DNA of 64,000 bases, from positions 62,001-126,000 of the forward strand of contig JAEVLN010000027.1 in the NCBI GenBank assembly GCA_018350325.1. The letters run 5' to 3'. Below the pieces are notes generated by a model that was not told where the DNA came from, ran no database searches, and saw only the letters and a list, made by a program, of their open reading frames with translations. Below are positions 16,974 through 60,800 of this stretch, in pieces; positions within the stretch are counted from its first letter, which is position 1; each line of letters begins with the position of its first letter. This stretch comes from Globodera rostochiensis. Its lineage: Eukaryota > Nematoda > Chromadorea > Rhabditida > Heteroderidae. Both the position numbers and the translations under genes were made by a program.

Positions 16974-19900
16974 ATGGGTTTGCCACAAATTTCCCTTTTT
17001 CTTATTTTAATTTTAATTTTAACTTCTGAGTCAATTGCCGACAAAAGGTTTATTTAAATATTCTGCAATCTTTAATATATTTAAATGGCATTTCAGTGAA
17101 ATCGCTTACCGTATCACGAAAATTGGTGAAAAAAAGATTTTCTTGGCTGTTCAAATCAACGAAAACTGCAATAATGGGTTTATAAAACAAAACAAAACAA
17201 AACAAAAAAAAGTTTTGATTTAATTTTTCAGATTTGTGATTTGCTACACGAATCATCTGCTCAAGCATAAAACATCGAAAGAAACTTATAAGGTGGATAT
17301 AATATATATTTAAACAGAATTGTTCTGTCAGAACGGAATGCCAACCGGTGAAATGCCGACAAGGCCTGAACGGTCAAAATGCCAACTTCGCTAAATTTAC
17401 TTAAAAAACTACGATTTATCGGTGATTAAAGATTTTATCAATGTAGCAATTAGATCATTTTCCGGCTGTCATTTTGACCTTTTAGGTCTGGTTGGCATTT
17501 TAACATAGCGTCGAATTTTTGCTTGCAAATTTTTGAAATTTTTTGAAGTGCGTTGTGGACCAGGCTTGCCACGGTCAAAATGCCAATTCGCCAAAGAATT
17601 TTTTGTTAGAAACTATGACGATATCATCGTGCTTGGTTGGCATTTTGGGCTAGCGCCCAAATTGTTGCCAGCAAATTTTAAATTTTATTGCATTAAAATA
17701 AAAAAGTTAAAATCAAAAAAAGAGATAACTTTTTTATGCCAATTTAATCGGCCTTATTTTAAAGACGGCCGGCCGTTTCCGAACAACAAATGATTTGGAC
17801 GGCATTTTTAAAAATTGCTCTGGAAAAAAGGACGAAATTCCGCAGGTGGATTCTTTGGAATTTGAATTTTAAACCCTTTTAAATCGAATAAATAATATAA
17901 CTTTAAATTTAACATAGAGTGGAATATTTGTGCATTCGGTGCCAACAAAAAATGGAAAAACGGAACTTCGCATCAAAATGTCCAATGGATACAAGTAAAA
18001 TAATTTTAGAAAATGAAATGAATTAAATAAAATGAGTTTTAAATTTAGTTTTTCGTGCCACCTACGAGCCAACAAATTTGCTATCCAATTGTATGGAATC
18101 AGATCAATGTTTGCCCCGTCAAAAGTGGTTGGATGTGCGGGTACAAAATTTTTTTTTTGTTTTTTAAAAATTTTACATTATATTTTATTGCCAGAATGTG
18201 ATAAAAGCACAATGATGGGCCACAACTTTTGGGAAAAACCGGCATTTTTGGTTGATTTTGCCGGCCTTTGGCAACTCGGATTGGAGCTGATGCCGCCGCT
18301 TTCAGCAAAAATTGGCACCGATTTAAAACTCGCGTACTTTGGCTTATGCCCGGCGGCGAGCAATTGGCATGTAAATATTACGGTAATTATTTCTTTTGTC
18401 AAATTATGTTGCTTTTTTAATGATATGTATTAGAGATCGGACAAGAGCCGATCGAGAGAAAATATCGAAAATAAGATCCCCTAAAATTTCTTCAATCGAG
18501 ATTTGATCAAGAATCTCGAAAAATTTTGATTGTGATTTAGCAAATTTTGATCAGTCCGATCTCTATATTAAAAGCAAGCCAATCAAATTTTACGTGGATT
18601 ATTTGTGATACAATCACTAGAGACTGGGTCGATATGCACCAAAATGCCGAAATACGCACCTACATATGCAACGAAAACTGGCACTTTTAGAGCCTTTGCT
18701 TAATACTTAATTTTTTCTTGACAAAATAATTAGATTTGAAGCTTTTTCGCTTATAATTTTAGTATTTTTGAAAAGTTGAATAAATTTGAAAAAGTCCGGT
18801 ATGATTTTTATTTTACCGATCGCTGTCTGAGATTTCGGAAATGTCAAAGAGAAAAGGAATCTCATTAGAATGAATTATTTAATCCAATTAAACTTTAAGA
18901 ATGTGACTTCAGTTACTTCGTCGTCCCAGGTCAAATGATGCTTAAACGCAAAAGATGGAAAAAACGAAATTTCTTCATTTAATGATTTAAAAATATTATA
19001 AACTTTCAAATTTAGGAAGTGGCCAAGACTTTGTTGTCTTTAATTGACCCCCAAAAGGATCCGTGCCAAGATTTTTATGCATTTGCGTGCCATCAGAACA
19101 TTAAGCGGAATGACGGCATTTTCAAAGCAAAATCTGCCGAAGAAGAATTATTTGACATTTTTCCAAAACCTTTCGACATAACGATGAATAATCCTCCGAC
19201 TTTTGCTTTTTTTAAAAAAAGGGCAGCTGCTGGTAGAAGAAAGCCTGCCGAATCAATGACGGAAAATGTGCTGGAAAGGGTAAAAATAATTATTATTATT
19301 AAATCGACGCTATTTTTTAATAATTTTTTGAATTAAAACCCACAATTTTTTAGGCTCGGCAAATTTGTACCCGAGACAATACCAGCGTAAAAGAAATTTG
19401 GTCCAAAATAAATAACAAATTTTATAATCAATTTGGCGGCATGCCCGCCTTGGTTGGACAAAGTTGGCACCACTCAACCGTAAAATCGTCAGAAGCTTTT
19501 TGGAGGATTATCGGCAGTCTTTTATCGGAAAATGTATGCAAAAGCAAATAATAGAGCTCTAAATTAAAGATTGGACCGATCAAAATTCTTGACATAAATC
19601 TCGATCGATTTTTTGAGATTCTCGATCAAAATTATTGATCGATGCTTAAGTCCAAATACTCTAAATTTGATGAGTTTTGATGACGAAATTCTTCCCGACT
19701 GAGCCGTCAAACCTTTCACAGTTTGATACTATCAAATTTTGGAATTGTTGAAAATTTAGTCAAAACAAAATTTATTGGAAAACAAAGCTTTTGTTTTATT
19801 TAACAAAAACTTAACAAATTGTTTTTTTAATTTGCTTAGATTTATTCCTTTTTTCTTCCTCTCAAATTTACTGTCCATAAACCACATGTTCATAATGTGA

Positions 19901-22900
19901 TTGGTGTTGCTCCACCAAAATTATTTGTGTCGCGACATTTGCTGCTGAAGCATGAACTTCGGCATATGTTGGAGGAGTTCAAAGAAAAACTGCTTGAGGT
20001 GATAAACTCACCAAAAATGTAATTTAAATAATGTTGTTATTCTCTTAAGGTTTTTGAAAGGTTGCAAACGCTTTCTGGTGTTGAATATTTGGACAACCAA
20101 CACTTGAATCGGTCCATTGATGATGTATTTGAGTTTACAGCTCGCCTGGCACAACAAATATTGCCAGATGCTGAACAAAACTTTCACAATACGGTAAATT
20201 CTGATAATCTTTTATTTTGAAAACATTTTCCCCGTTAAGTTCACTTTGAATTCGTTGTCAAATGCATTCCCCTCCATCAATGGACAGCTTTTTTTGATGG
20301 GATGGGTATTTTGGACATTTTGCAGGAATCGGAAAGGAAGTTCAACAGCTTTTCGTTGATTGTGCCAGATTTGAATTATGTTGGCTTTTTGAATACGTTT
20401 TTTGAAGGAGTACAACAACAACAATGGACAACAAATCGTACGGTGTTCAATTTCATTTGCACCCAAATTTTGATTGTAAGGAATGGATATTTTTTTGCCT
20501 GATTTAACACATTTAATTTATTTAACTTCTGAGCAACTTGCATTTCTTATCTGGGACATCGAAGGTGGACATGTGTGCTGCCATAATGCTTGAATTGATG
20601 CCAATTGCAATAGGTAAAAACTTTTTTAATTAAATCAGAAATTTGAATCATCGAATTTAAACTTCACAAAGGCCCGAGAATAAATGCCAAATTTTGGAAA
20701 ATTCCTGGAAATCGAGTCGTTTTATTCCCGAAGAGTCTGGCTTGAGTACAAATTGACATTTACACTAAAAAAAAGTTGATAAATCACAGGTTATTCGTAC
20801 GTCAAAACAATCGCAAATCGTGATGACATTATTGAAGATGTCCAACAACAGACGGAGTTTCTTTTTGAGGCTTTTGCAGAGAAATTGAACTCAACAAGCT
20901 GGGCAACGGCAGAAACAAAGCGAAAAGTACAGGCAAAGCGTACGTTTTGTATCATTAATTAAAAAATATTATTAATAATGTTATTAATTTACAAATTGTT
21001 TATTTATTTAAACAGTGTCCAAAATGAAGCTAAATCTCGGATGGCCAACCCAAATATATGGAGATTTCAAAAACACTACGATGCTGGATGTTTTTCATAA
21101 AGAATATGGTCTGTGGAATTAAAATTAATTTTTGGGGGTTTTTTTTTGTTTAGAAAATTTCCCAAGCCGTCAAAATTTGGATTGGTTTGATGCATTTTAT
21201 GAACTTGTTAAATGCAAAGATCGAACTGATCTGAATTATGCGTTTAAAGTACCTGAGCCTTTCAATTTTATAATTTCACCAGGCAATGGTAAACAATTTA
21301 AAATATAATTTGAATTTATTTAATTTAAAAATGCTTTATAGATAAATGCCGTTCATGAAGTCCCTTCTAACAATTTGGTAATTCCACTCGCTATTCTTCA
21401 GTTGCCATTTTACAAGTAAAATTTATTTTTAAAAATTTTCAAAAACAAAATCAAATTGTTCAAGCATAAGCTTTCCGCAATCATTCAATTTTGGTGGCGT
21501 TGGATTTGTGATTGCCCATGAAATTGCACATGGCTTTGATAATCGAGGTAAAGCTAAAAAAGTATTGCTTAATTTTTTAATTTTAACTAAAAATAAATAT
21601 ACAAAGCCTTCTTTTGCCAATATTTATTTGTAAATTGTTTAAACAATAATTTATTTTTTAGGAATCCAAATTGAAGCAAATGCGAACATTTCGAATTGCA
21701 CTCATAGTCAGGACCAGGACACTTGTAGTTTAATGGACAAAATGTCCTTAAAGGGATTTAAAACTATGGTAAAATGTGTGGAAAATTTGTACTCAAACAA
21801 ATGTTGCCCTATTGATGAGGGCGAATTGAAGTGAGAAAATTTTAAAATCGGTTTTTTAAATTTGTTTTCCAATTACCGTATTCACTCTCTAAGAATCCCC
21901 CACTCTCTAAGAATCCCCCACTCTCTAAGAATCCCCCACTCTCTAAGAATCCCCCACTCTCTAAGAATCCCCCACTCTCTAAGAATCCCCCACTCTCTAA
22001 GAATCCCCCACTCTCTAAGAATCCCCCACTCTCTAAGAATCCCCCACTCTCTAAGAATCCCCCACTCTCTAAGAATCCCCCACTCTCTAAGAATCCCCCA
22101 CTCTCTAAGAATCTCCCACTCTCTAAGAATCCCCCACTCTCTAAGAATCCCCCACTCTCTAAGAATCCCCCACTCTCTAAAAATCCCCCACTCTCTAAGA
22201 ATCCTCCACTCTCTAAGAATCCCCCACTCTCTAAGAATCCCCCACTCTCTAAGAATCTCCCACTCTCTAAGAATCCCCCACTCTCTAAGAATCTCCCACT
22301 CTCTAAGAATCCTCCACTCTCTAAGAATCCCCCACTCTCTAAGAATCCCCCACTCTCTAAGAATCTGACTCCGCCCAATAATTGTCTGATCACTTCTCTC
22401 AGCATTGGATCGCCCCGCCCCACCAGTGTTCGTTTGTTCCCCCCTCAGGGCCTTTATTCATTCGATCGGGGATTGGGCTCCCGAAACACCTTTGCCCAAT
22501 CCCCCCCTCTCCCGTCTGTCCCGAGACGAATCGGGTTATGTTATTACCTTCACATTGGCCAATGTTTGGAAATCACCTTCTGAATAAAGCTTATTGTTCA
22601 TCCCTTTGTAAATTGGAGGTATACAAATGCCTCAGGGCTTTCCCCGCTATTCATGGAGGTCCCGCCCGGATTCGAAACGCCGGTTCAATTCCGGCCCGCC
22701 CCCAAGTTTTTCCCGCAAAAGCTCCCAGCGCTCGTTACTTTCAAATCCCCCACTCTCTAAGAATCCCCCACTCTCTAAGAATCCCCCACTCTCTAAGAAT
22801 CCCCCACTCTCTAAGAATCCCCCACTCTCTGAGTAGGTTGAAAATAATCCCCCAAGGGGGATTACAAGAGTGAATACGGTATAGGCTTTTAGTGATTATT

Positions 22901-23435
22901 GACCATTTTTAGGTGTGCATTTGGTGAACAGACATTGAATGAAAACATTGCTGACATTTCTGGTCAATAATTGAAAATTTGGGTTTTAAATTTAAATTTG
23001 TAAGTTTTTCAAGGCAGCCCTGTGTCCTACAATGCCTACAAGAAATTTGTTCAACAATATCGGAATGGGATTGAAGAGGAACCAATTGAGGGCTTGGAGC
23101 AGTACTCACACTACCAACTTTTTTGGATTGCTGGTGCCCAAGCCTGGTATAATTTTATTAAAACAATTAAATAAAATTATATTTTAAAAGGTGCCTCCAA
23201 ACGCCGCTTAATAAAAAAACCCAAATCAACATGATTTTGAATGACGTGCATTCTCCTAAAGCTTGTCGTATTAACCAAGTTTTTCAGGTTAATTTTAGGA
23301 ATATAAAATTAATAAATAAATGAAATTAATTTTATTAATTTAAAGAATTTGCCCGATTTTGGACGGGACTTTAACTGCCCGATCGGCTCTCCGATGCGCC
23401 CGTTGGAGAAGGAGCAATGCAAAGTGTGGACGTAA
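16974..23435 (+). CDS. Secreted M13 zinc metallopeptidase (neprilysin-like) with an extra N-terminal module
   Basis: Cleaves peptides outside the cell in the neprilysin family. Module exons: 16974-17047 (signal peptide MGLPQISLFLILILIL..), 17097-17177, 17232-17292, 17765-17845, 17918-17994, 18049-18140, 18195-18382. Peptidase exons: 19016-19279 (DPCQDFYAFAC), 19354-19533, 19840-19998, 20050-20193, 20240-20475, 20565-20613, 20790-20939, 21016-21108, 21154-21288, 21342-21415, 21465-21547, 21662-21830, 22913-22962, 23014-23146, 23191-23287, 23346-23435. HEIAH (21517-21531) is the zinc motif, NENIAD (Glu at 22941) the third ligand, and the chain ends CKVWT, as M13 enzymes do. About 920 residues, roughly 200 longer than usual. 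One base is missing near 20279 (FPSIN / WTAFF), and the 21288/21342 junction is out of frame, so this is either a pseudogene or contains consensus indels. The module-peptidase join is inferred from matching phase 0. Confidence 0.85.
18432..18564. mobile_element. Small MITE with AGAGATCGGAC ends
   Basis: Inverted termini AGAGATCGGAC / GTCCGATCTCT bound 133 bp. It lies in the intron joining the N-terminal module to the peptidase. No clear 8-bp duplication remains. It belongs to the same family as the element at 59107-59244, which has an intact duplication and lies in the equivalent module-enzyme intron of the apyrase gene. Confidence 0.65.
21876..22879. mobile_element. TA-flanked MITE carrying an 18-bp minisatellite
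   Basis: Inverted termini CCGTATTCACTCT are flanked by TA on both sides (21874-21875 and 22880-22881). Two blocks of the 18-bp unit CACTCTCTAAGAATCCCC fill much of it: about 26 copies at 21889-22367 and about 5 at 22746-22832. They are separated by ~380 bp of unique sequence that includes a B-box-like GGTTCAATTCC. The unit is an extension of the terminal repeat itself, so the array probably grew from the element's own end. It sits in the neprilysin intron between the HExxH-side exon and the NENIAD exon. The long frames on both strands here are repeat artefacts. Confidence 0.85.
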
Positions 23436-24219
23436 ATTATTTATTTCGCATTTTTTGTTTGTTTTAACCAATTATTTACTTTTTCGTTATTAATCAATTT
23501 CCCATTCATTCATTTATTTATATATTTTAAATACCTTTTCCAATTATAATAATACTTTGGTGTCTGTCTATTCGCGCAGCGTTTGATTAGTTGATGAAGC
23601 TTTTTGCCATTACACATACATAATATATTTGATTAAAAAATTGTCCTCAATGTTTGTTTCTTTTCAAAGTTGAAATGAAATTTATCAATTTCCACAGAAT
23701 ATGAACTAAAAATCCTTAAATATGGGCTAAAACCCTAAAAAGTGCCATCAAAAATGTACTAAAACTAATAACTTCAATAAAAAAAGAGGGGCGAGAGTCC
23801 AAAATCCTATATTAATTGGTGAAGACGATGCGCCAAAAGATTAAAAAGTGAAGAAGGTTAGACGCGAGATTTGAAAGAAATAGTGTGGAAAGTGAAGAGA
23901 CTTTTGACAGAGAAAGAGAGCAAAAATGAGTGATAAGGTAGGGTAGAGATATTGAGCAAATGGCTTACAAATTAGAGAAAAAGAAAGAAGAAAGAGAAAA
24001 GAGTGAGGGTGGAAGAGGCAGGAGAAAGAGTGAAGGAGGGAGTGTGATGAGAAAATGACGGGGCAGAGATTAAAGCGGTTGGTAAAGAAAAAGTAAGTGT
24101 AATATTCAATTGTGTTAGTGGGGTAGTGGATAAGCGCTTTAGCATTGCATTAGACAATGCGTGGGTTCAATTCCCGAATCCGAAAATTCTTTTTTCAATG
24201 AATTAAAATAAACTAAATA
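23436..24219. other. 3' flank of neprilysin; purine-rich tract and a tRNA-like fragment
   Basis: A strongly purine-rich stretch runs from about 23830 to 24060. At 24112-24182 the plus strand has an A-box-like TAGTGGATAAGCG, a 6-bp stem GCATTG/CAATGC around a 7-base loop, and a B box GGTTCAATTCC. The loop lacks the expected T33 and no acceptor stem forms, so this is a tRNA-derived (SINE-like) relic rather than a working tRNA. Confidence 0.4.
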
Positions 24220-25796
24220 CCGTATTTCCTCTATTAGTAGTAAAAACTAGAGCCCGGACTTGAGCTTCGAGCGAGACTCGAGACGAGATTCTCGAAAAAA
24301 TCTCGGGTCTCGAAAAATCTCGAAAATTCAGATTTATTCGAGACGAGATGTCGAGACGAGATTTTTCGAGAATCTCGGATCTCGAAAAATCTCGAGCCAG
24401 AACAGTCGAGACTCGAGATTTTTGATAAAAATATAATTTTTTTTCCAAAATTCTCAGAAACTCCACCAAATTTTGGTAAGGATAAGAAGGGAGCACTGAA
24501 AGCATGTCTGCAAAATTTGGTCACGAAATATAAGAGTTAGCCTGTGTTCCAAGGTTTTGAAAATCAAAAGAAAATTCAATGGTGAGGGGATATGTCTGAC
24601 CATATGCTGTCTGCCGCATTGCTATTTTTTTGAATCAATAGAGAAATTGCTTAAATTTTGGCGTTTCGCTTCTGGGTTTGACCCATAGTGGGGTTAGAAA
24701 GAGCCGGTGAAAAAATTGTTAGGATTTTGTAAACATTTTTTAAAGAAATTTTTAAAATTGAGAATTCTATTCACTTTTGGGAGTGAGAGGAGGTTCGGCG
24801 GTGCCGATAGGCGCCGCCGAGAACATTTTGAATTTTTAACTCATTTTGTTAAGAGAGTTGCAACCAAAATGGAGTATGTCCGGCGGTGCCGACAGGCGCC
24901 GCCTGGGGAATTTTTTACAAAAATTGGCAATCTTTGTTGAAAAGCACTGTTTTCATGAAAAATTTTTGGAGTCGAGATCGAGAATCTCGAGTTTCTTTCG
25001 AGCGAGACTCGAGACGAGATTCTCGAAAAAATCTCGGATCTCGAAAAAATCTCGGATCTCGAAAAATCTCGAAAATTCAGTTTTATTCGAGACGAGATTT
25101 TTCGAGAATCTCGTCGAGATTTTTCGAGATCTCGAGACGAGATTCTCGTCTCGACCGGGCTCTAGTAAAAACCTTCATTCGTCATTTTTTATATTCCTCT
25201 TTTACCTAATTGGAAATATAATATTTTCACATGTTTTGGAACATTTTATAAAATTACCATAAAAAAATTTTAGGGAAAATTTCGATCTTTGGGGGTGGAT
25301 TTTTTGTAAAAGAAAAAGTCATTTTTAGAGGTGCATTTTTGTTCTAAATTTGATTTCTAAGGCTACATTTTTCATTTTTATTGCATTTTTCTTAAGAAAT
25401 TTTTGGAAAAAGTGCCTGAGATATTGAATACAAAAATTTTGCTGGAAAATGCCTAAAAATTGCGTTTTTCTCAAGAAAAATGCCCAAAGTCTCTAGTGAT
25501 AAGATTTCAAAAAAATGTCGCATTTTTACAATCGACGAAAAATTGGAAGTAGGTACCTAGTCATTTGTTAGTGACGGATCAGTGGAATTATGATTTTGTG
25601 CAAATATTTTTGGTACAGAAATTTATTTTGATTTAGAAAATAATATAAAAATTTAATTTATGTAAATAATTTTTGAAAATTTGTATTGAAAAATAGTAAC
25701 CCACCCTCTATTTGAAACCCCCTTCTAATTGTAACCCCCCCCTCGAGGGGGGTTTGAACAATTGTAACCCATGGGTTACTAATAGAGGAAATACGG
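24220..25796. mobile_element. TA-flanked MITE containing a nested hAT-type element
   Basis: Perfect 20-bp inverted termini begin CCGTATTTCCTCTATTAG and are flanked by TA at 24218-24219 and 25797-25798. The first seven bases match the MITE in the neprilysin intron, so they are probably one family. The element is split by a hAT-type insertion at 24248-25164. Its own right part has GTAACCC-type short repeats and a CCCCTCGAGGGG palindrome. Confidence 0.85.
24248..25164. mobile_element. hAT-type MITE nested in a TA MITE
   Basis: Termini TAGAGCCCGG / CCGGGCTCTA are flanked by the 8-bp duplication GTAAAAAC (24240-24247 and 25165-25172). Sub-terminal regions are dense in TCTCGAGA-like words. The middle holds two copies of the GC-rich hairpin (cggtgccgataggcgccg near 24797, and a variant near 24886). 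It has no coding capacity. Confidence 0.87.
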
Positions 25797-25798
25797 TA

Positions 25799-45867: not shown

Positions 45868-48800
45868 ATGAATTTGCTCATAATAAACCTTTTAATTGCC
45901 TCGATGGCATTTGCTGCCTTCGGAGCGTAAATATTAATTAAAATAATAAATATATTAAATAAATAAATACTTTAGGCATCCTTGGGTGCGTGACCCGTGG
46001 AGTGAGTGCAAACTCGAGACAAATGGACTTTTTATGCTGGAAAAGGAATGCAAAAAGTAATTTTTTAACAATTTTTCATTAACAAAAATTAATTAATTAA
46101 TGCTTTTTCAGCCTCCAAATTTGCTACCAAAGCAAATTGGCTGGCAAATTGGACATCGACGGCAAATCGAAATTTGGCGGGCGATTCGGATTAAAAAAGC
46201 GTGTGAATGACAAGCCTCCGTTTTTTGATTGTGCCGTCGTTATGGGAGGGCGTGGGGGTTGGCATGGCCTGAACATCACCAGAAACAGTGACGGAAACTC
46301 CTCCACCATTCAGTCAAGGCGAGTCGTATTTCGCGAGGCTAACATTTTCGCCGCGTGTCGAATTTGCCCTACGGCTAAATGTGAATTTGCCCTACGGCTA
46401 AATGTGAATTTGCCCTACGGCTAAATGTGAATTTGCCCTACGGCTAAATGTGAATTTGCCCTACGGCTAAATGTGAATTTGCCCTACGGCTAAATGTGAA
46501 TTTGACCTACGGCTAAATGTGAATTTGCCCTACGGTTAAATGTGAATTTGCCCTACGGCTAAATGTGAATTTGCCCTACGGCTAAATGTGAATTTGCCCT
46601 ACGGCTAAATGTGAATTTGCCCTACGGCTAAATGTGAATTTGCCCTACGGCTAAATGTGATTTGCCCTACGGCTAAATGTGAATTTGACCTACGGCTAAA
46701 TGTGAATTTGCCCTACGGTTAAATGTGAATTTGCCCTACGGCTAAATGTGAATTTGCCCTACGGCTAAATGTGAATTTGCCCTACGGCTAAATGTGAATT
46801 TGCCCTACGGCTAAATGTGAATTTGCCCTACGGCTAAATGTGAATTTGCCCTACGGCTAAATGTGAATTTGCCCTACGGCTAAATGTGAATTTGCCCTAC
46901 GGCTAAATGTGAATTTGACCTACGGCTAAATGTGAATTTGCCCTACGGTTAAATGTGAATTTGACCTACGGCTAAATGTGAATTTGCCCTACGGTTAAAT
47001 GTGAATTTGCCCTACGGCTAAATGTGAATTTGCCCTACGGCTTAAATGTGAATTTGACCTACGGCGAAATGTGAATTTGCCCTACGGCTAAATGTGAATT
47101 TGCCCTACGGCTAAATGTGAATTTGCCCTACGGCTAAATGTGAATTTGCCCTACGGCTAAATGTGAATTTGACCTACGGCTAAATGTGAATTTGCCCTAC
47201 GGCTAAATGTGAATTGACCTACGGCTAAATGTGAATTTGCCCTACGGCTAAATGTGAATTTGCCCTACGGCTAAATGTGAATTTGCCCTACGGCTAAATG
47301 TGAATTTGCCCTACGGCTAAAGTGAATTGCCCTACGGCTAAATGTGAATTTGCCCTACGGCTAAATGTGAATTTGCCCTACGGCTAAATGTAATTTGCCC
47401 TACGGCTAAATGTGAATTTGCCCTACGGCTAAATGTGAATTTGCCCTACGGCTAAATGTGAATTTACTCTACGGCTAAATGTGAATATGCCCTACGGCTA
47501 AATGTGAATTTGCCCTAACGCTAAATGTTGAATTTGACCTACGGCTAAATGTGAATTGCCCTACGGCTAAATGTGAATTTGCCCTACGGCTAAATGTGAA
47601 TTTGCCCTACGGCTAAATGTGAATTTGCCCTACGGCTAAATGTGAATTTGCCCTACGGCTAAATGTGAATTTGCCCTACGGCTAAATGTGAATTTGCCCT
47701 ACGGCTAAATGTGAATTGCCCTACGGCTAAATGTGAATTTGCCCTACGGCTAAATGTGAATTTGCCCTACGGCTAAATGTGAATTGACCTACGGCTAAAT
47801 GTGAATTTGCCCTACGGCTAAATGTGAATTTGACCTACGGCTAAATGTGAATTGCCCTACGGCTAAATGTGAATTTGCCCTACGGCTAAATGTGAATTTG
47901 CCCTACGGCTAAATGTGATTTGCCCTACGGCTAAATGTGAATTTGCCCTACGGCTAAATGTGAATTTGCCCTACGGCTAAATGTGAATTGCCCTACGGCT
48001 AAATGTGAATTTGCCCTACGGCTAAATGTGAATTTACCTACGGCTAAATGTGATATGCCCTACGGCTAAATGTGAATTTGCCCTACGGCTAAATGTGAAT
48101 TTGCCCTACGGCTAAATGTGAATTTGACCTAACGGCTAAATGTGAATTTGCCCTACGGCTAAATGTGAATTGCCCTAACGGCTAAATGTGAATTTGCCCT
48201 ACGGCTAAATGTGAATTTGCCCTACGGCTAAATGTGAATTTGCCCTACGGCTAAATGTGAATTTGCCCTACGGCTAATGTAATTTGCCCTACGGCTAAAT
48301 GTGAATTTGCCCTACGGCTAAATGTGAATTTGCCTACGGCTAAATGTGAATTTGCCCTACGGCTAAATGTGAATTTGCCCTACGGCTAAATGTGAATTTG
48401 CCCTACGGCTAAATGTAATTTGCCCTACGGCTAAATGTGAATTGCCTCTAACGGCTAAATGTGAATTTGCCCTACGGCTAAATGTGAATTTGCCCTACGG
48501 CTAAATGTGAATTGCCCTACGGCTAAATGTGAATTTGCCCTACGGCTAAATGTGAATTTGCCCTACGGCTAATGTGAATTTGCCCTACGGCTAAATGTGA
48601 ATTTGCCCTACGGCTAAATGTGAATTTGCCCTACGGCTAAATGTGAATTTGCCCTACGGCTAAATGTGAATTTGCCTACGGCTAAATGTGAATTTGCCCT
48701 ACGGCTAAATGTGTGAATTTGCCCTACGGCTAAATGTGAATTTGCCCTACGGCTAAATGTGAATTTGCCCTACGGCTAAATGTGAATTTGCCCTACGGCT

Positions 48801-51800
48801 AAATGTGAATTTGCCCTACGGCTAAATGTGAATTTGCCCTACGGCTAAATGTGAATTTGCCCTACGGCTAAATGTGAATTTGCCCTACGGCTAAATGTGA
48901 ATTTGCCCTACGGCTAAATGTGAATTTGCCCTACGGCTAAATGTGAATTTGCCCTACGGCTAAATGTGAATTTGCCCTACGGCTAAATGTGAATTTGCCC
49001 TAGCGGCTAAATGTGAATTTGCCCTACGGCTAAATGTGAATTTGCCCTACGGCTAAATGTGAATTTGCCCTACGGCTAAATGTGAATTTGCCCTACGGCT
49101 AAATGTGAATTTGCCCTACGGCTAAATGTGAATTTGCCCTACGGCTAAATGTGAATTTGCCCTACGGCTAAATGTGAATTTGCCCTACGGCTAATGTGAA
49201 TTTGCCCTACGGCTAAATGTGAATTTGCCCTACGGCTAAATGTGAATTTGCCCTACGGCTAAATGAATTTGACTACGGCTAATGTGAATTTGCCCTACGG
49301 CTAAATGTAATTTGGGGGGGCCCTACGGCTAAATGTTAATTTGCCCTACGGCTAAATGTGAATTTGCCCTACGTGCTAATGTGAATTTGCCCTACGGCTA
49401 AATGTGAATTTGCCCTACGGCTAAATGTGAATTTCCCTACGGCTAAATGTGAATTGCCCTACGGCTAAATGTGAATTTGCCTACGGCTAAATGTGAATTT
49501 ACCTACGGCTAAATGTGAATTGCCCTACGGCTAAAGGTGAATTGCCCTACGGCTAAATGTCTAAATGTATTGCCCTACGGCTAATGTGAATTGCCCTACG
49601 GCTAAATGTGAATTTGCCCTACGGCTAAAATGTTTGCCCTACGGCTAAATGTGAATTTGCCCTACGGCTAAATGTGAATTGCCCTACGGCTAAATGTGAA
49701 TTTGCCCTACGGCTAAATGTGAATTTGCCCTACGGCTAAATGTGAATTTGCCCTACGGCTAAATGTGAATTTGCCCTACGGCTAAATGTGAATTTGCCCT
49801 ACGGCTAAATGTGAATTTGCCCTACGGCTAAATGTGAATTTGCCCTACGGCTAAATGTGAATTTGCCCTACGGCTAAATGTGAATTTGCCCTACGGCTAA
49901 ATGTGAATTTGCCCTACGGCTAAATGTGATCCTACGGCTAAATGTGAATTTGCCCTACGGCTAAATGTGAATTTGCCCTACGGCTAAATGTGAATTTGCC
50001 CTACGGCTAAATGTGAATTTGCCCTACGGCTAAATGTGAATTTGCCCTACGGCTAAATGTGAATTTGCCCTACGGCTAAATGTGAATTTGCCCTACGGCT
50101 AAAATGTGAATTTGCCCATACGGCTAAATGTGAATTGCCCTACGCTAAATGTGATTTGCCCTACGGCTAAATGTGAATTTGCCCTACGGCTAAATGTGAA
50201 TTTGACCTACGGCTAAATGTGAATTTGCCCTACGGCTAAAGGTGAATTTGCCTACGGCTAATGTGAATTTGCCTACGGCTAAATGTGAATTTGCCCTACG
50301 GCCTAAATGTGAATTTGCCCTACGGCTAAAATGTGAATTTGCCCTACGGCTAAATGTGAATTTGCCCTACGGCTAAATGTGAATTTGCCCTACGGCTAAA
50401 TGTGAATGTGAATTTGCCCTACGGCTAATGTGAATTTGCCCGACGGCTTAAAGTGATTTGCCCTACGGCTAAATGTGAATTTGCCCTACGGCTAAATGTG
50501 AATTTGCCCTACGGCTAAATGTGAATTTGCCCTACGGCTAAATGTGAATTTGCCCTACGGCTAAATGTGAATTTGCCCTACGGCTAAATGTGAAATTTGC
50601 CCTACGGCTAAAGTGTGAATTTGCCCTACGTCTAAATGTGAATTTGCCCTACGGCTAAATGTGATTTGCCCTACTGCTAAATGTGAATTTGCCCTACGCT
50701 AAATGTGAATTTGCCCTACGGCTAAATGTGAATTTGCTCTACGGCTAATGTGAATTTGCCCTACGGCTAAATTGGAATTTGCCTCTACGGTTAAATGTGA
50801 ATTTGCCCGTACGGCGAAATGTGGATTTGCCCTACGGCTAAATGTGAATTTGCCCTACGGCTAAATGTGAAGTTGCCCTACGGCTAAATGTGAATTTGCC
50901 CTACGGCTAAATGTGAATTTGCCCTACGGCTAAATGTGAATTGCCCTACGGCTAAATGTGAATTTGCCCTACGGCGAAATGTGAATTTGCCCTACGGCTA
51001 AATGTGAATTTGCCTACGGCTAAATGTGAATTTGCCCTACGGCTAAATGTGAATTTGCCCTAACGGCTAAAGTGAATTTGACCCTACGGCTAATGTGAAT
51101 TTGCCCTACGGCTAAATGTGAATTTGCCCTACGGCTAAATGTGAATTTGCCCTACGGCTAATGTGAATTTGCCCTACGGCTAATGTGAATTTGCCCTACG
51201 GCTAAATGTGAATTTGCCCTACGGCTAAATGTGAATTTGCCACGCTAATGGGATGTGCCCTACGGCTAAATGTGAATTGCCCTACGGCTAAATGTGAATT
51301 TGCCCTAACGGCTAAATGTGAATTTGCCCTACGGCTAAATGTGAATTTGCCTACGGGCTAAATGTGAATTGCCCTACGGCTAAATGTGAATTTGCCCTAC
51401 GGCTAAATGTGAATTTGCCCTACGGCTAAATGTGAATTTGCCCTACGGCTAAATGTGAATTTGCCCTACGGCTAAATGTGAATTTGCCCTACGGCTAAAT
51501 GTGAATTTGCCCTACGGCTAAATGTGAATTTGCCCTACGGCTAAATGTGAATTTGCCCTACGGCTAAATGTGAATTTGCCCTACGGCTAAATGTGAATTT
51601 GCCCTACGGCTAAATGTGAATTTGCCTACGGCTAAATGTGATTTGCCCTACGGCTAAATGTGAATTTGCCCTACGGCTAAATGTGAATTTGACCTACGGC
51701 TAAATGTGAATTTGCCCTACGGCTAAATGTGAATTTGCCCTACGGCTAAATGTGAATTTGCCCTACGGCTAAATGTGAATTTGACTCTACGGCTAAATGT

Positions 51801-54800
51801 GAATTTGCCCTACGGCTAAATGTGAATTTGCCCTACGGCTAATGTGAATTTGCCCTACGGCTAAATGTGAATTTGCCCTACGGCTAAATGTGAATTTGCC
51901 CTACGGCTAAATGTGAATTTGCCCTACGGCTAAATGTGAATTTGCCCTACGGCTAAATGTGAATTTGCCCTACGGCTAAATGTGAATTTGCCCTACGGCT
52001 AAATGTGAATTTAGCCCTACGGCTAAATGTGAATTTGCCCTACGGCTAAATGTGAATTTGCCCTACGGCTAAATGTGAATTTGCCCTACGGCTAAATGTG
52101 AATTTGCCCTACGGCTAAATGTGAATTTGCCCTACGGCTAAATGTGAATTTACCTACGGCTAAATGTGAATTATGCCCTACGGCTAAATGTGAATTTGCC
52201 CTACGGCTAAATGTGAATTTGCCCTACGGCTAAATGTGAATTTGCCTCTACGGCTAAATGTGAATTTGCCCTACGGCTAAATGTGAATTTGCCCTACGGC
52301 TAAATGTGAATTGCCTACGGCTAAATGTGAATTTCCTCTACGGTTAAATGTGAATTTGCCCTACGGCTAAATGTGAATTTGCCCTACGGCTAAATGTGAA
52401 TTGCCTACGGCTAAATGTGAATTTGCCCTACGGCTAAATGTGAATTTGCCCTACGGCTAAATGTGAATTTGACCTACGGCTAAATGTGAATTTGCCCTCC
52501 GGCTTTTAAATGTGAATTTGCCCTACGGCTAAATGTGGAATTGTTTTACCTTACGGCTAAATGTGGAATTTAGCCCTACGGCTAAATGTGAATTTGCCCT
52601 ATCGGGCTAATGTGAATTTGCCCCCTACGGGACCTAAATGTGGCATTTGCCTCTACGGCTAAATGTGATATGCCCTACGGCTAAATTGTGAATATTGACC
52701 CTACGGCCTTAAATGTGAATTTGCCCTACGGCTAACTGTGAATTTTGCCCCTACGGCTCATGTGAATTTGCCCTCTACGGCTCCATGTGAATTTGCCCTA
52801 CGGCCAATGTGAATTTGCCCTACGGTCTAATGTGAATTTGCCCTACGGCTAAATGTGAATTTGCCCTACGGCTAAATGTGAATTTGCCCTACGGCTAAAT
52901 GTGAATTTGCCCTACGGCTAAATGTGAATTTGCCCTACGGCTAAATGTGAATTTGCCCTACGGCTAAATGTGAATTTGCCCTACGGCTAAATGTGAATTT
53001 GCCCTACGGCTAAATGTGAATTTGCCCTACGGCTAAATGTGAATTTGCCCTACGGCTAAATGTGAATTTGCCCTACGGCTTAATGTGAATTTGCCCTACG
53101 GCTAAATGTGAATTTGCCCTACGGCTAAATGTGAATTTGCCCTACGGCTAAATGTGAATTTGCCCTACGGCTAAATGTGAATTTGCCCTACGGCTAAATG
53201 TGAATTTGCCCTACGGCTAAATGTGAATTTGCCCTACGGCTAAATGTGAATTTGACCTACGGGCTAAATGTGAATTTGCCCTACGGCTAAATGTGAATTT
53301 GCCCTACGGCTAAATGTGAATTTGCCCTACGGCTAAATGTGAATTTGCCCTACGCTAATGTGAATTGCCCTACGGCTAAATGTGAATTTGACCTACGGCT
53401 AAATGTGAATTTGCCCTACGGCTAAATGTGAATTGCCCTACGGCTAAATGTGAATTTGCCCTACGGCTAAATGTGAATTTGCCCTACGGCTAAATGTGAA
53501 TTTGCCCTACGGCTAAATGTGAATTTGCCCTACGGCTAAATGTGAATTTGCCCTACGGCTAAATGTGAATTTGCCCTACGGCTAAATGTGAATTTGCCCT
53601 ACGGCTAAATGTGAATTTGCCCTACGGCTAAATGTGAATTTGCCCTACGGCTAAAGGGGAATTTGCCCTACGGCTAAATGTGAATTTGCCCTACGGCTAA
53701 ATGTGAATTTGCCCCTACGGCTAAATGTGAATTTGCCCTACGGCTAAATGTGAATTTGCCCTACGGCTAAATGTGAATTTGCCCTACGGCTAAATGTGAA
53801 TTTGCCCTACGGCTAAATGTGAATTTGCCCTACGGCTAAATGTGAATTTGCCCTACGGCTAAATGTGAATTTGCCCTACGGCTAAATGTGAATTTGCCCT
53901 ACGGCTAAATGTGAATATGCCCTACGGCTAAATGTGAATTTGACCTACGGCTAAATGTGAATTTGCCCTACGGCTAAATGTGAATTTGCCCTACGGCTAA
54001 ATGTGAATTTGCCCTACGGCTAAATGTGAATTTGCCCTACGGCTAAATGTGAATTTGCCCTACGGCTAAATGTGAATTTGCCCTACGGCTAAATGTGAAT
54101 TTGCCCTACGCTAAATGTGAATTTGCCCTACGGCTAAATGTGAATTTGCCCTACGGCTAAATGTGAATTTGCCCTACGGCTAAATGTGAATTTGCCCTAC
54201 GGCTAAATGTGAATTTGCCCTACGGCTAAATGTGAATTTGCCCTACGGCTAAATGGAATTTGCCCCTACGGCTAAATGGCATTTGACCTACGGCTAAATG
54301 TGAATTTGCCTACGGCTAAATGTGAATTTGCCCTACGGCTAAATGTGAATTTGCCCTACGGCTAAATGTGAATTTGCCCTACGGCTTAAATGTGAATTTG
54401 CCTACGGAAATGTGAATTTGCACTACGGCTAAATGTGAATTGACCTCTACGGCTAAATGTGAATTTGCCCTACGGCTAAATGTGAATTTGCCCTACGGCT
54501 AAATGTGACTTTGCCCTACGGCTTAAATGTGAATTTGCCCTACGGCTAAATGTGAATTTGCCCTACGGCTAAATGTGAATTTGCCCTACGGCCTAAATGT
54601 GAATTGCACCTACGGCTAAATGTGAATTGCCCCTACGGTTAAATGTGAATTTGCCCTACGGCTAAATGTGAATTTTGCCCTACGGCTAAATGTGAATTTG
54701 CCCTACGGCTAAATGTGAATTGCCCTACGGCTAAATGTGAATTTGCCCTACGGTTAAATGTGAACTTTGCCCTACGGCTAAATGTGAATTTCCCTACGGC

Positions 54801-57800
54801 TAAATGTGAATTTGCCCCTACGGCTAAATGTGAATTTGCCCTACGGCGCTAATGTGAATTTGCCCTACGGCTAAATGTGAATTTGCCCTACGGCTAAATG
54901 TGAATTTGCCCTACGGCTAAATGTGAATTTGCCCTACGGCTAAATGTGAATTTGCCCTACGGCTAAATGTGAATTTGCCCTACGGCTAAATGTGAATTTG
55001 CCCTACGGCTAAATGTGAATTTGCCCTACGGCTAATGTGAATTTGCCCTACGGCTAAATGTGAATTTGCCCTACGGCTAAATGTGAATTTGCCTACGGCT
55101 AAATGTGAATTTGCCCTACGGCTAAATGTGAATTTGCCCTACGGCTAAATGTGAATTTGCCCTACGGCTAAATGTGAATTTGCCCTACGGCTAAATGTGA
55201 ATTTGCCCTACGGCTAAATGTGAATTTGCCCTACGGCTAAATGTGAATTTGCCCTACGGCTAAATGTGAATTTGCCCTACGGCTAAATGTGAATTTGCCC
55301 TACGGCTAAATGTGAATTTGCCCTACGGCTAAATGTGAATTTGCCCTACGGCTAAATGTGAATTTGCCCTACGGCTAAATGTGAATTTGCCCTACGGCTA
55401 AATGTGAATTTGCCCTACGGCTAAATGTGAATTTGCCCTACGGCTAAATGTGAATTTACTCTACGGCTAAATGTGAATTTGCCCTACGGCTAAATGTGAA
55501 TTTGCCCTACGGCTAAATGTGAATTTACTCTACGGCTAAATGTGAATTTGCCCTACGGCTAAATGTGAATTTGCCCTACGGCTAAATGTGAATTTGCCCT
55601 ACGGCTAAATGTGAATTTGCCCTACGGCTAAATGTGAATTTGCCCTACGGCTAAATGTGAATTTGCCCTACGGCTAAATGTGAATTTGCCCCACGGTTAA
55701 ATGTGAATTTGCCCTACGGCTAAATGTGAATTTGCCCTACGGCTAAATGTGAATTTGCCCTACGGCTAAATGTGAATTTGCCCTACGGCTAAATGTGAAT
55801 TTGCCTACGGCTAAATGTGAATTTGCCCTACGGCTAAATGTGAATTTGCCCTACGGCTAAATGTGAATTTGCCCTACGGCTAAATGTGAATTTGCCCTAC
55901 GGCCTAATGTGAATTTGCCCTACGGCTAAATGTGAATTTACTCTACGGCTAATGTGAATTTGCCCTACGGCTAAATGTGAATTTGCCCTACGGCTAAATG
56001 TGAATTTACCTACGGCTAAATGTGAATTTGCCCTACGGCTAAATGTGAATTTGCCCTACGGCTAAATGTGAATTTGCCCTACGGCTAAATGTGAATTTGC
56101 CCTACGGCTAAATGTGAATTTGCCCTACGGTCCTTAAATGTGAATTTGCCCTACGGCTAAATGTGAATTTGCCCTACGGCTAAATGTGAATTTGCCCTAC
56201 GGCTAAATGTGAATTTGCCCTACGGCTAAATGTGAATTTGCCCTACGGCTAAATGTGAATTTGCCCTACGGCTAAATGTGAATTTGCCCTACGGCTAAAT
56301 GTGAATTTGCCCTACGGCTAAATGTGAATTTGCCTCTACGGCTAAATGTGAATTTGCCCTACGGCTAAATGTGAATTTGCCCTACGGCTAAATGTGAATT
56401 GCCTCTACGGCTAAATGTGAATTTGCCCTACGGCTAAATGTGAATTTGCCCTACGGCTAAATGTGAATTTGCCCTACGGCTAAATGTGAATTTGCCCTAC
56501 GGCTAAATGTGAATTTGCCCTACGGCTAAATGTGAATTTGCCTTACGGCTAATGTGAATTTGCCCTACGGCTAAATGTGAATTTACTCTACGGCTAAATG
56601 TGAATTTGCCCTACGGCTAAATGTGAATTTGCCCTACGGTTAAATGTGAATTTGCCCTACGGCTAAATGTGAATTTGCCCTACGGCTTAAATGTGAATTT
56701 GCCCTACGGCTAAATGTGAATTTGCCCTACGGCTAATGTGAATTTGCCCCTACGGCTAAATGTGAATATGCCCTACGGCTAAATGTGAATTTGCCCTACG
56801 GCTAAATGTGAATTTGCCCTACGGCTAAATGTGAATTTGCCCTACGGCTAAATGTGAATTTGCCCTACGGATAATGTGAATTTGCCCTACGGCTAAATGT
56901 GAATTTGCCCTACGGCTAAATGTGAATTTGCCCTACGGCTAAATGTGAATTTGCCCTACGGCTAAATGTGAATTTGCCCTACGGCTAAATGTGAATTTGC
57001 CCTACGGCTAAATGTGAATTTGCCCTACGGCTAAATGTGAATTTGCCCTACGGCTAAATGTGAATTTGCCCTACGGCTAAATGTGAATTTGCCCTACGGC
57101 TAAATGTGAATTTGCCCTACGGCTAAATGTGAATTTGCCCTACGGCTAAATGTGAATTTGCCCTACGGCTAAATGTGAATTTGCCCTACGGCTAAATGTG
57201 AATTTGCCCTACGGCTAAATGTGAATTTGCCCTACGGCTAAATGTGAATTTGCCCTACGGCTAAATGTGAATTTGCCCTACGGCTAAATGTGAATTTGCC
57301 CTACGGCTAAATGTGAATTTGCCCTACGGCTAAATGTGAATTTGCCCTACGGCTAAATGTGAATTTGCCCTACGGCTAAATGTGAATTTGCACTACGGCT
57401 AAATGTGAATTTACTCTACGGCTAAATGTGAATTTGCCCTACGGCTAAATGTGAATTTGCCCTACGGCTAAATGTCTAAATGTGAATTTGCCCTACGGCT
57501 AAATGTGAATTTACTCTACGGCTAAATGTGAATATGCCCTACGGCTAAATGTGAATTTGCCCTACGGCTAAATGTGAATTTGCCCTACGGCTAAATGTGA
57601 ATTTGACCTACGGCTAAATGTGAATTTGCCCTACGGCTAAATGTGAATTTGATCTACGGCTAAATGTGAATTTGCCCTACGGCTAAATGTGAATTTGCCC
57701 TACGGCTAAATGTGAATTTGCCCTACGGCTAAATGTGAATTTACTCTACGGCTAAATGTGAATTTGCCCTACGGCTAAATGTGAATTTACTCTACGGCTA

Positions 57801-60800
57801 AATGTGAATTTGCCCTACGGCTAAATGTGAATTTGCCCTACGGCTAAATGTGAATTTGCCCTACGGCTAAATGTGAATTTGCCCTACGGCTAAATGTGAA
57901 TATGCCCTACGGCTAAATGTGAATTTGACCTACGGCTAAATGTGAATTTGCCCTACGGCTAAATGTGAATTTGCCCTACGGCTAAATGTGAATTTGCCCT
58001 ACGGCTAAATGTGAATTTGCCCTACGGCTAAATGTGAATTTGCCCTACGGCTAAATGTGAATTTGCCCTACGGCTAAATGTGAATTTGCCCTACGGCTAA
58101 ATGTGAATTTGCCCTACGGCTAAATGTGAATTTGCCCTACGGCTAAATGTGAATTTGACCTACGGCTAAATGTGAATTTGCCCCACGGTTAAATGTGAAT
58201 TTGCCCTACGGCTAAATGTGAATTTGCCCTACGGCTAAATGTGAATTTGCCCTACGGCTAAATGTGAATTTGCCCTACGGCTAAATGTGAATTTGCCCTA
58301 CGGCTAAATGTGAATTTGCCCTACGGCTAAATGTGAATTTGCCTTACGGCTAAATGTGAATTTGCCCTACGGCTAAATGTGAATTTACTCTACGGCTAAA
58401 TGTGAATATGCCCTACGGCTAAATGTGAATTTACTCTACGGCTAAATGTGAATATGCCCTACGGCTAAATGTGAATTTGACCTACGGCTAAATGTGAATT
58501 TGCCCTACGGCTAAATGTGAATTTGCCCTACGGCTAAATGTGAATTTGCCCTACGGCTAAATGTGAATTTGCCCTACGGCTAAATGTGAATTTGACCTAC
58601 GGCTAAATGTGAATTTGCCCTACGGCTAAATGTGAATTTGCCCTACGGCTAAATGTGAATTTGCCCTACGGCTAAATGTGAATTTGCCCTACGGCTAAAT
58701 GTGATCCTACGGCTAAATGTGAATTTGCCCTACGGCTAAAAAATGTCGGCCAATCGTATTTCGGCAGTAAATTTAACCGTTTTATAATTTTAGCATTGGA
58801 TTTAATGCAGAATTTAATGATATTTTCGACACCAAGAGCAAACAATTCACGGCGGCATTTAACATCTCCAAAGGTTTTGTACAAAAAGTGTTGTTTTTAT
58901 TGTTTTTAATATATTTTTTTACACAGATTTTTCACCAATCGAAAAGGACTTTCAAAACTTGTTGCATTTGGGCGCGTTTATGAACGATTTGGACGAAATG
59001 GCACTCCGTATTTTGACAATGGACCTTCTCTCATCCACCGGACAAAATGGCACCGGATGGTGCAAGAAAAAGGTCCCCCCGAATTTGTACTATGCGTTAA
59101 TGATACAAGAGATCGGGCCAATCAAGAATCTCGATCGTCGGTAAATCTTGATCGAGATTTTTCGTGAATCTCGATCGACGAAATTTTACAAGATCTTTAA
59201 TGCTTTTTCGAGATTCTCAATAGGTCCACAAGTGTCCGATCTCTAATGATACCTCTCAAAATTCATTGCAATTTATTTTTATTAAGTGTGGCTTTGGCTA
59301 CCAATTGGCGGTGATTGCTGATTTGGACAAAGACAGCAAAGTGAAAGGTAAGGAGAATGTGTGGCAGACTTTTGTGCGCCGGGGCCGTCTCTTCTACGAC
59401 CCCGCCGCCGGCGTTGTTCAATCCGACCCCGCCGCCGCCGCTACCCCCGCCGCCACCGCCGCCGCTACTGCCGCCGCCACCGCCGCCGCTACTGCCGCCG
59501 CCACCGCCGCCGCTACTGCCGCCGCCACCGCCGCCGCTACTGCCGCCGCCACCGCCGCCGGCGTTGTTCAGCCATCGGTGAAGATCGAATGGCTCAAGTT
59601 GGAGACGGTTGAGCAGAAGCTGTCCGGCAACCTTTCGGACAAAGGAAGAGCGATGGAGTGCGTTATTTGTGTGGAACGTCCAATCAAAAACAAACTGTTA
59701 CAAAAATTGTTGTTGTTCAGGCTGTCCGATCTCTGTATTTTTGATGGCCATTTGCTCACTGTGGACGATCGGACTGGCTTTGTGTACAGGTGCAGCGCTT
59801 TTTGTTGGTTTTCTTAAGTACAGCTCGTGCCCCGGGCTTCGGGGAGAATGTGTCCAACCCATATAATTAATCGATCGATCACTTCCTCAAGGCGAGATCT
59901 ACCAGCAGGGCTGGACGCAATCGGATTGATTGCGGGCAATTCGCAATATGCAATCTCGACAAAAAAAATCCGCAATTCGCAATCCGCAACCCCCAAAAAG
60001 CCGCAAGATCCGTAATCCGCAATTGCGTCCAGCCCTGGATGGGACCGGGACTGGTGTCTCGGTCGCCCTACCCCCTCCTCCCCTCTTGTAGTCTCAAAAG
60101 TAAGGCTTTCGGTTTCAAACCGAACCGAAACCCGGCATTTTTTGGGTCGGTTTCGGTTAACCGCGACAGCCTTAGTCAGCAGCCATCGCCCCGGGGGAGG
60201 CGCTTCTCCGACAATCAACCAGCGGCCCTCAACCCCTCGTCAGAAAACGTTTATTTTCTGCAGCGCGTAAATTTAATTTGAGGATGGACAACTTCACTTA
60301 CATGAAGCCCTGGGTGTTTCTGAAAGATGGGCCCGGAACCGCAAATATATCCAAAGGCTTCAAAGGCGAATGGATGACCGTGCGGGACAACAAGCTTTAT
60401 GTGGGCGGGTTGGGCAAAGGTAAGCGCAAAGCGTTGCGACACGGAATTTTGGGGAATGGAGCAAAGGACAAATTGAAGTCGAGACCAGACTTGGGGAGCA
60501 CCAATCGAGAATCTCGAGAAAGCACTAATTGCAAAATATAGTCGATCGAGAATCTCGGTCGCTCCATTCTCTAATTTGAAGTCAAAGATTTTTATAAGTA
60601 TATTTTGAGAATGGACAACGCCAAATGGTGAGCCGGTCAATAACCATCCGATGTTTGTGAAGGTAATGAATGGGGTTAATGAATTGATTAGATAATAAAT
60701 TGATGTGTTTAACTGGCAAACATTAAACATATATTGGCAAATTTATTTTTTAAATGGTGGCGGGAAAATTGATTTTGTGGTGGTCCGACCCAGCAGGGGA

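What the first reader, a model, noticed from the sequence alone, without database searches (positions are those of the whole stretch)
16974..59072. A shared N-terminal exon module is joined to two different secreted enzymes (neprilysin and apyrase)
Both genes start with a signal-peptide exon ending in phase 2, then an exon of exactly 81 bp ending in phase 2. The next boundaries also match in phase: 225 bp in apyrase against 61+81+77=219 bp in neprilysin (phase 2), then 80 against 92 bp (phase 1), then 146 against 188 bp (phase 0), where the enzyme begins. Residues line up: C45..C51 of ICY, GRF at 70, C87 in apyrase; C49..C56 of ICY, GRF at 75, C90 in neprilysin, with ND between GRF and the last Cys. 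The second intron lies four codons before the ICY Cys in both. A later AF-x2-D is also shared. I know of no such domain in M13 peptidases or CANT-type apyrases. It could be a targeting, binding or inhibitory prodomain spread by exon shuffling.
Basis: partly seen in the sequence, partly recalled or inferred. Interest (0 to 1): 0.92.

Follow-up and report, generated by a model that had tools for sequence, protein, structure and literature searches.

The report
Shared secretion module on unrelated enzymes
In the potato cyst nematode Globodera rostochiensis, one five-exon front module that Pfam does not recognise lies directly in front of at least five unrelated enzyme types, and in two of them it stands where sister genes appear to encode a membrane anchor, so it would likely turn anchored enzymes into secreted ones.

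Summary
The window is Globodera rostochiensis. The apyrase module belongs to a family without a Pfam match; all 33 hits of the profile search come from Globodera. Of 40 module exon-5 hits in this genome, 24 have an enzyme exon downstream on the same strand: 20 astacin, 3 GT10 fucosyltransferase, 1 apyrase (random placement: mean 0.39, most 3). A second module branch precedes a trypsin-like (S1) exon at 11 loci. The neprilysin module is a distant member: its exon 3 beats every shuffle against the family profile, and its last module exon matches the S1 branch, which bridges it to the main family. G. pallida proteins support the exon 3-4 join that in the window spans a 12.4 kb satellite. Sister apyrase and GT10 genes without the module begin with anchor-like stretches (2 of 4 clear, 1 borderline), so the module likely supplies secretion and perhaps an extracellular address. 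Fold, destination and transcripts are missing. The window neprilysin copy goes out of frame in exon 12.

The parts
16974..17047 (+). neprilysin gene exon 1: hydrophobic N-terminus, likely signal peptide (74 bp, phase 2)
   Evidence: hydropathy; not part of the UniProt model P0035
17097..17177 (+). neprilysin module exon 2 (81 bp, phase 2)
   Evidence: not in P0035
17232..17292 (+). neprilysin module exon 3a with ICY (61 bp)
   Evidence: family profile match; not in P0035
17765..17845 (+). neprilysin module exon 3b with GRF (81 bp)
   Evidence: in UniProt model P0035
17918..17994 (+). neprilysin module exon 3c (77 bp, phase 2)
18049..18140 (+). neprilysin module exon 4 (92 bp, phase 1; the same length as exon 4 of the first module in L010)
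18195..18382 (+). neprilysin module exon 5 equivalent, AFLVDFAGLW (188 bp, phase 0)
   Evidence: matches the S1-branch exon 5
18900..18929 (+). possible extra 30-bp exon between module and enzyme, present in the UniProt model only
19016..23435 (+). M13 peptidase exons of the neprilysin gene (hand model; reading goes out of frame in the exon 12 stretch, about 20240-20475)
45868..45926 (+). apyrase gene exon 1: likely signal peptide (59 bp, phase 2)
45976..46056 (+). apyrase module exon 2 (81 bp, phase 2)
46112..46318 (+). apyrase module exon 3 (207 bp, phase 2, GC donor)
   Evidence: same donor in L012 and L010; junction in P0008
46360..58740 (+). 23-bp satellite array filling intron 3 of the apyrase gene
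58794..58873 (+). apyrase module exon 4 (80 bp, phase 1)
58927..59072 (+). apyrase module exon 5, LGAFMNDLD (146 bp, phase 0)
59287..59657 (+). fusion exon 6: last module Cys codon (TGT) then the apyrase domain; the 3' end was read by eye from the consensus donor
   Evidence: sequence; start
59716..61985 (+). remaining apyrase (PF06079) exon matches
   Evidence: contig coordinates less 62000

Best explanation
Both window genes carry the same five-exon front module (predicted signal peptide plus a Cys domain of about 165 residues), which belongs to a Globodera family also found in front of astacins, S1 protease exons and GT10 fucosyltransferases, and which would likely make the attached enzyme a soluble secreted protein in place of an anchored one. 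Shown by sequence: the module copies; common intron phases (2,2,2,1,0) in the apyrase, astacin-type and GT10 genes read; their place directly upstream of different catalytic domains; annotated fusion proteins in G. pallida (apyrase, GT10) and G. rostochiensis (GT10, astacin, M13); and different break points (the apyrase joins inside exon 6 after TGTGGCTTTGG, whereas GT10 keeps the donor's exon 6). Read from open frames, not spliced: anchor-like starts in sister apyrase and GT10 genes without the module. Inferred: the signal peptide works; the enzymes leave the cell; and the folded Cys domain holds them at a common extracellular place such as the eggshell, the cuticle or a secretory granule.
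For: Profile search with the neprilysin left out: 33 of 33 hits are Globodera proteins; Pfam tags apyrase in 3, GT10 in 3 and astacin in 1 (sequences). Genome order: 24 of 40 exon-5 hits have a same-strand enzyme exon within 6 kb downstream (20 astacin at 18 loci, 3 GT10, 1 apyrase); controls are 0 of 40 upstream same strand, 1 of 40 downstream opposite and 0 of 40 upstream opposite; random placement gives mean 0.39 and at most 3 in 1,000 runs. S1 branch: 12 of 18 exon-3 hits, that is 11 loci, and 9 of 27 exon-5 hits lead into a trypsin exon; controls are 0; Pfam trypsin E 1.5e-6 and 6.9e-9 in the two tested. Neprilysin: 20.3 bits, bridge at 24.4 bits, and two UniProt models with part of the module plus PF05649 and PF01431. 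Anchor-like starts: apyrase on C78 (hydropathy 2.36) and GT10 L068 (2.83), both over my flag of 1.9; L069 just under it (1.83); none of these loci nor L067 matches the module profiles (best 5.9 bits against 103.2 in the fused L062). Exon phases. Junctions. Tree: apyrase modules form one clade (100/99) inside the C80 astacin type, while GT10 modules lie elsewhere, which suggests separate captures.
Against: No transcript was available. The UniProt entry for the window apyrase module (P0001, 150 aa) stops inside the satellite, and both UniProt neprilysin models lack exons 1-3a. 16 of 40 exon-5 hits have none of the three enzyme families searched downstream; L063 and L064 look degenerate. For S1 mostly the N-terminal trypsin exon was matched, so whole proteases are not shown, and phases in that branch were not tested. 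A fourth sister, GT10 L067, showed no clear anchor before the catalytic exons. Astacins are normally secreted already (recalled), so anchor replacement cannot explain the commonest fusion. No signal-peptide predictor was run. Both AlphaFold models are poor (mean pLDDT 39.8 and 48.1) and give no fold. The neprilysin branch is very long (3.04).
Confidence: 0.72

Rival explanations
1. The module is an inhibitory prodomain that is cut off to activate the enzyme.
For: In the astacin class a basic run (RNRRKKRQ, NRAKRQ) sits between module plus second domain and the catalytic part (P0002, P0004, P0010, P0015).
Against: I saw no such run at the apyrase, GT10 or neprilysin junctions; the apyrase domain begins within a few residues of the last module Cys. 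One inhibitor for proteases, a nucleotidase and a glycosyltransferase is unlikely.
Confidence: 0.12
2. The module addresses enzymes for injection into the plant: an effector-delivery domain.
For: Only Globodera in the search; expanded and clustered; likely secreted. Astacins as a class are up in early parasitic stages of G. pallida (PMC4054857, one passage).
Against: The dorsal-gland promoter motif ATGCCA (recalled) is not convincingly enriched: 10 sites in 8.3 kb upstream of 17 module genes (1.20 per kb) against 0.70 per kb in the window, 8 of the 10 from four related genes.
Confidence: 0.2
3. The fusions are annotation or clustering artefacts: module genes merely lie next to enzyme genes.
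For: No cDNA; UniProt models disagree at the 5' ends.
Against: One-sided, same-strand adjacency (24 of 40 against 0, 1 and 0 of 40), conserved phases, the shared exon 6 start TGT in seven junctions and fusion models in two species.
Confidence: 0.06
4. The neprilysin front is not homologous to the apyrase module; only the pattern is alike.
For: Pairwise E = 0.21; exons 2, 4 and 5 are not significant against the main family (exon 5 again 152 of 5,000); branch length 3.04.
Against: Exon 3: 0 of 10,000 shuffles; exon 5 against the S1 branch: 0 of 5,000; the S1 branch itself matches the main family (11.9 and 14.2 bits, 0 of 5,000).
Confidence: 0.12

Closest known systems
CANT-type apyrase (Pfam PF06079)
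   Same: Catalytic domain of the window gene and of its G. pallida relative P0008
   Different: Sister gene on C78 appears to start with a type II anchor and stem; the window gene has a likely signal peptide plus module instead
M13 peptidase / neprilysin (PF05649, PF01431)
   Same: Both Pfam domains, and the HEIAHGFD zinc motif in P0035 and P0036
   Different: Described as transmembrane in PMC5478601 (passage); here a likely signal peptide and the module precede the catalytic domain
GT10 fucosyltransferase (PF00852, PF17039)
   Same: Catalytic domain of P0017, P0018, P0021 and L062
   Different: Near sisters L068 and L069 have anchor-like starts and no module; the fused forms carry the module
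Astacin M12A (PF01400)
   Same: Catalytic half of P0002 with HELLHALGLWH
   Different: Module plus a second unnamed domain in front; by my gene model of L010, two modules in tandem
Group XIII phospholipase A2 (PDB 4aup)
   Same: Weak sequence-profile match, E = 0.023, around C-x5-CY
   Different: The HD of the active site is absent, and the low-confidence model has a strand there; treated as chance

Membership tests
Globodera front-module family (defined here) | five module exons with phases 2,2,2,1,0 | tested here: met
   apyrase, L012, L010, L017, L062, L065; neprilysin the same after two extra introns in exon 3
Globodera front-module family (defined here) | C..ICY-GRF-C core matched by the family profile | tested here: met
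   the G. pallida apyrase fusions are in the profile; neprilysin 20.3 bits, 0 of 20,000 shuffles
Globodera front-module family (defined here) | closing Cys coded by the first codon of exon 6 | tested here: inconclusive
   met in the apyrase and six other junctions; absent in the neprilysin
M13 peptidase | both M13 Pfam domains over the curated cut-off | tested here: met
   PF01431 112.6 bits and PF05649 81.8 bits on a stitched reading
M13 peptidase | type II membrane anchor of neprilysins | tested here: not met
   no 19-residue stretch over 1.1 mean hydropathy from residue 26 to the start of the M13 domain in the hand model; residues 1-30 reach 1.92
M13 peptidase | intact reading frame in the window copy | tested here: not met
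   out of frame in the exon 12 stretch; the inverted copy P0036 reads through
CANT-type apyrase | PF06079 match | tested here: met
   window exons; P0008 332.6 bits
Phospholipase A2 | catalytic His-Asp | tested here: not met
   HD replaced in the aligned members
Dorsal-gland effectors | ATGCCA promoter motif (recalled) | tested here: inconclusive
   1.20 against 0.70 per kb, mostly related copies
Any Pfam domain (module part) | match at E up to 10 | tested here: not met
   one hit, DUF2025 at E 0.078 in 1 of 8 members; none in the two modules

The most novel reading that the evidence does not exclude
A genus-level secretion and address module has been shuffled onto a whole set of enzymes (astacins, S1 proteases, an M13 peptidase, a nucleotidase and GT10, with GT31 and GT11 as leads), freeing Golgi and membrane enzymes to act together outside the cell. 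The worm would thus export its own glycosyltransferases and nucleotidase to one extracellular site, such as the eggshell or the host interface.
Probability: 0.4. Interest if true: 0.87.

Novelty: new variant of a known kind. Interest (0 to 1): 0.76.

Why it matters
Exon shuffling of a signal-bearing module onto unrelated enzymes is seldom so recent and so repeated: module-bearing genes lie in one genome with sister genes that appear to keep the old anchor, so gain, break point and replacement can be read together. It offers a defined new domain to look for in secretions of an important potato pest, and a direct test of whether type II glycosyltransferases and a nucleotidase were re-purposed for export. 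Published work points to a neprilysin as the first gene induced by root diffusate in this species (PMC5478601, passages) and to an M13 gene raised 28.5-fold in potato cyst nematodes (PMC6555003, passages); whether either is the window gene is not known.

Tried and rejected
Fold: two AlphaFold jobs, mean pLDDT 39.8 and 48.1; Foldseek against PDB gave no match at E below 0.001. The secondary structure (strand with ICY, helix with Cys, two strands, two helices) is a hint only.

PLA2 likeness (4aup, E 0.023): rejected, see membership test. A recalled likeness of GWHALRIS...TLDASF to laminin G strands was not supported by Pfam.

Is the second domain of the astacin class a repeat of the module? hhalign E 0.026 over 14 columns only: not shown.

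Dorsal-gland motif: not convincing.

Other apyrase matches: L056, L057 and L059 carry one near-identical dispersed apyrase exon in a repeat; L060 a different fragment; I saw no module in these. In four module loci without one of the searched enzymes downstream (L063-L066): two degenerate copies; two with module and second domain but no recognised catalytic domain in the 6 kb read.

GT11 was not found by the genome search, so the GT11 lead rests on one exon at E 0.0018 under the cut-off. GT31 lead: 18.1 bits, under the cut-off 23, 544 bp downstream of a module-like exon, and 13.5 bits by open frame.

Literature: nine searches. One search (exon shuffling) gave three papers; the passage read in PMC6367775 speculates on effector exon shuffling in Heterodera without this module. 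The other listings held nothing on this module by title or abstract start; most listed papers were not opened. Passages only were read in PMC5478601, PMC4054857, PMC6555003 and PMC6367775. Absence from print is claimed for these searches only.

Limits: the database search needs shared 5-residue words, so distant relatives in Heterodera and others could be missed. Genome counts are lower bounds by the tool's own note; the exon-5 probe scored 40 of 40 candidates. In one search contig lengths for the random control were guesses for C62, C2, C31, C12, C56 and C14. Profile rows came from 13 database proteins and two hand models. Recounting lowered the anchor claim (2 of 4 clear, 1 borderline, 1 unresolved) and the confidence by 0.02.
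Full report
What the window is. It lies on contig C20 (62001-126000) of a 92.6 Mb genome. The module of the apyrase gene is 100% identical over the 116 residues searched to the UniProt entry A0A914HTP9 of Globodera rostochiensis.

The observation. Splicing by hand gives exons of 74, 81, 61, 81, 77, 92 and 188 bp before the M13 domain, and 59, 81, 207, 80 and 146 bp before the apyrase domain. Paralogues L012 and L010 use the same GC donor, and the G. pallida protein P0008 runs straight through that junction. The 12.4 kb between apyrase exons 3 and 4 is a 23-bp satellite, 46360-58740. The UniProt entry for the window module stops inside it, whereas the G. pallida protein shows that exons 3 and 4 belong together. 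The UniProt neprilysin model adds a 30-bp exon, 18900-18929, between module and enzyme.

The family. The apyrase exon 3 probe finds 25 places in the genome, the window among them, and an exon 5 probe finds 40. The members I spliced share phases 2,2,2,1,0. By my model L010 is a gene with two modules in tandem. The module gives no Pfam match of note. A profile search of about 5.8 billion proteins, with the neprilysin left out, returned 33 hits with E up to 1, all from G. rostochiensis or G. pallida.

What follows the module. Pfam tags in those 33 proteins are apyrase (P0008, P0009, P0019, the last also with an EF-hand), GT10 fucosyltransferase (P0017, P0018, P0021), astacin (P0002) and a mitochondrial carrier (P0030, which I take as run-through); the others have none. 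In the genome, 24 of 40 exon-5 hits have a same-strand enzyme exon within 6 kb downstream: 20 astacin (18 loci, since two loci have double modules), 3 GT10 and 1 apyrase. The three control directions give 0, 1 and 0 of 40, and random placement a mean of 0.39 with a maximum of 3 in 1,000 runs. A more distant branch, found because both the neprilysin module and the family profile touched it, precedes trypsin-like S1 exons: 12 of 18 exon-3 hits, 11 loci, with no control hits. Mostly the first trypsin exon was matched, so complete proteases are not shown. Five of the other six hits of that exon-3 probe are exons of the main family by position, which shows the link from the other side.

The neprilysin. 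Against a profile of 15 family members its module scores 20.3 bits, and none of 20,000 shuffles reaches this. The signal lies in exon 3; exons 2, 4 and 5 alone are not significant against the main family. Its last module exon scores 24.4 bits against the S1 branch (0 of 5,000), and the S1 branch scores 11.9 and 14.2 bits against the main family (0 of 5,000). So common descent is well supported but distant (branch 3.04). Two UniProt proteins join part of the module to M13 domains: P0035, the window gene, and P0036, the inverted copy near C20:199.6-204.0 kb. Both models lack exons 1-3a, and the annotated module part of P0036 scores only 1.9 bits. The window copy goes out of frame in the exon 12 stretch while the inverted copy reads through, so the window copy may be inactive or the assembly faulty.

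How it likely works. The sister apyrase on C78 has upstream the open frame MTKVLIQTHPRHSNVLVGSTLAIWSLIFLLLAAFVSLQYYL, an anchor-like start with stem, and then the catalytic domain. GT10 gene L068 has the same plan, L069 a borderline one, and in L067 I could not make out an anchor; catalytic starts of L068 and L069 are close to those of the fused GT10. These starts were read from open frames and not spliced. None of the four loci matches the module profiles. In the fusions a hydrophobic start and the module stand there instead. The apyrase keeps the first codons of the donor exon 6 (TGTGGCTTTGG against TGTGCCTTTGA) and then becomes apyrase, whereas GT10 keeps donor exon 6 itself (TGTGCGGCTAAATTGG in both L062 and the enzyme-less L065). 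The break points differ and the tree puts the two module types in different clades, so these are probably separate captures. I infer that the module carries the enzyme into the secretory path as a soluble protein and that its Cys domain gives a common address. For astacins, with a basic processing site after module and second domain, it may also act as a removable front part. Secretion, address and activity are untested.

Comparison. It works like other signal-bearing modules spread by exon shuffling, but the domain family has no Pfam name, the search found it in Globodera only, and replacement of membrane anchors in two enzyme classes can be read beside anchored sisters. Published hints that neprilysin and astacin genes respond at hatching or early parasitism (PMC5478601, PMC4054857, PMC6555003; passages only) cannot be tied to these genes here.

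Open points. No transcripts, no reliable fold, no localisation; GT31 and GT11 fusions are leads only.

Noticed in passing
window 20240-20475: The window neprilysin copy and its UniProt model P0035 go out of frame in the exon 12 stretch, while the inverted copy P0036 reads through. Possible pseudogene or assembly error.
   Followed up: partly
G000 C20:199581-203955 (minus): Inverted copy of the module-neprilysin gene about 120 kb away on the same contig.
   Followed up: partly
window 46360-58740: A 12.4 kb array of a 23-bp unit inside an intron of an apparently intact gene.
   Followed up: no
window 59432-59560: A 24-bp tandem repeat inside fusion exon 6 codes Ala/Thr runs in the apyrase; a similar run is present in G. 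pallida P0009.
   Followed up: no
window 21883-22365 and 22744-22830: 18-bp repeat arrays within a neprilysin intron.
   Followed up: no
L083 (C80:3221800-3227000): Module-like exons followed by a weak GT31 galactosyltransferase match.
   Followed up: partly
L084 (C67:354300-359500): Module-like exons followed by an exon with a sub-threshold GT11 match, E 0.0018.
   Followed up: partly
L085 (C2:2733000-2737500): Module-like exon, 23.2 bits against the main family profile and 43.0 against the S1 branch, followed by a possible lectin-like stretch with no Pfam match.
   Followed up: partly
P0007, P0014, P0025, P0026, P0012: Modules joined to small Cys-rich repeats without a clear Pfam match, in more than one clade of the tree.
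   Followed up: partly
L056, L057, L059: One near-identical apyrase exon is dispersed on C7, C26 and C67 within a shared repeat.
   Followed up: no
G000 C20:328745-329189: An S1-type module copy followed by a trypsin exon lies on the same contig as the window.
   Followed up: no
L010 and L012, last exons: Before exon 9 of these astacin-class genes I found no AG acceptor in my reading.
   Followed up: no
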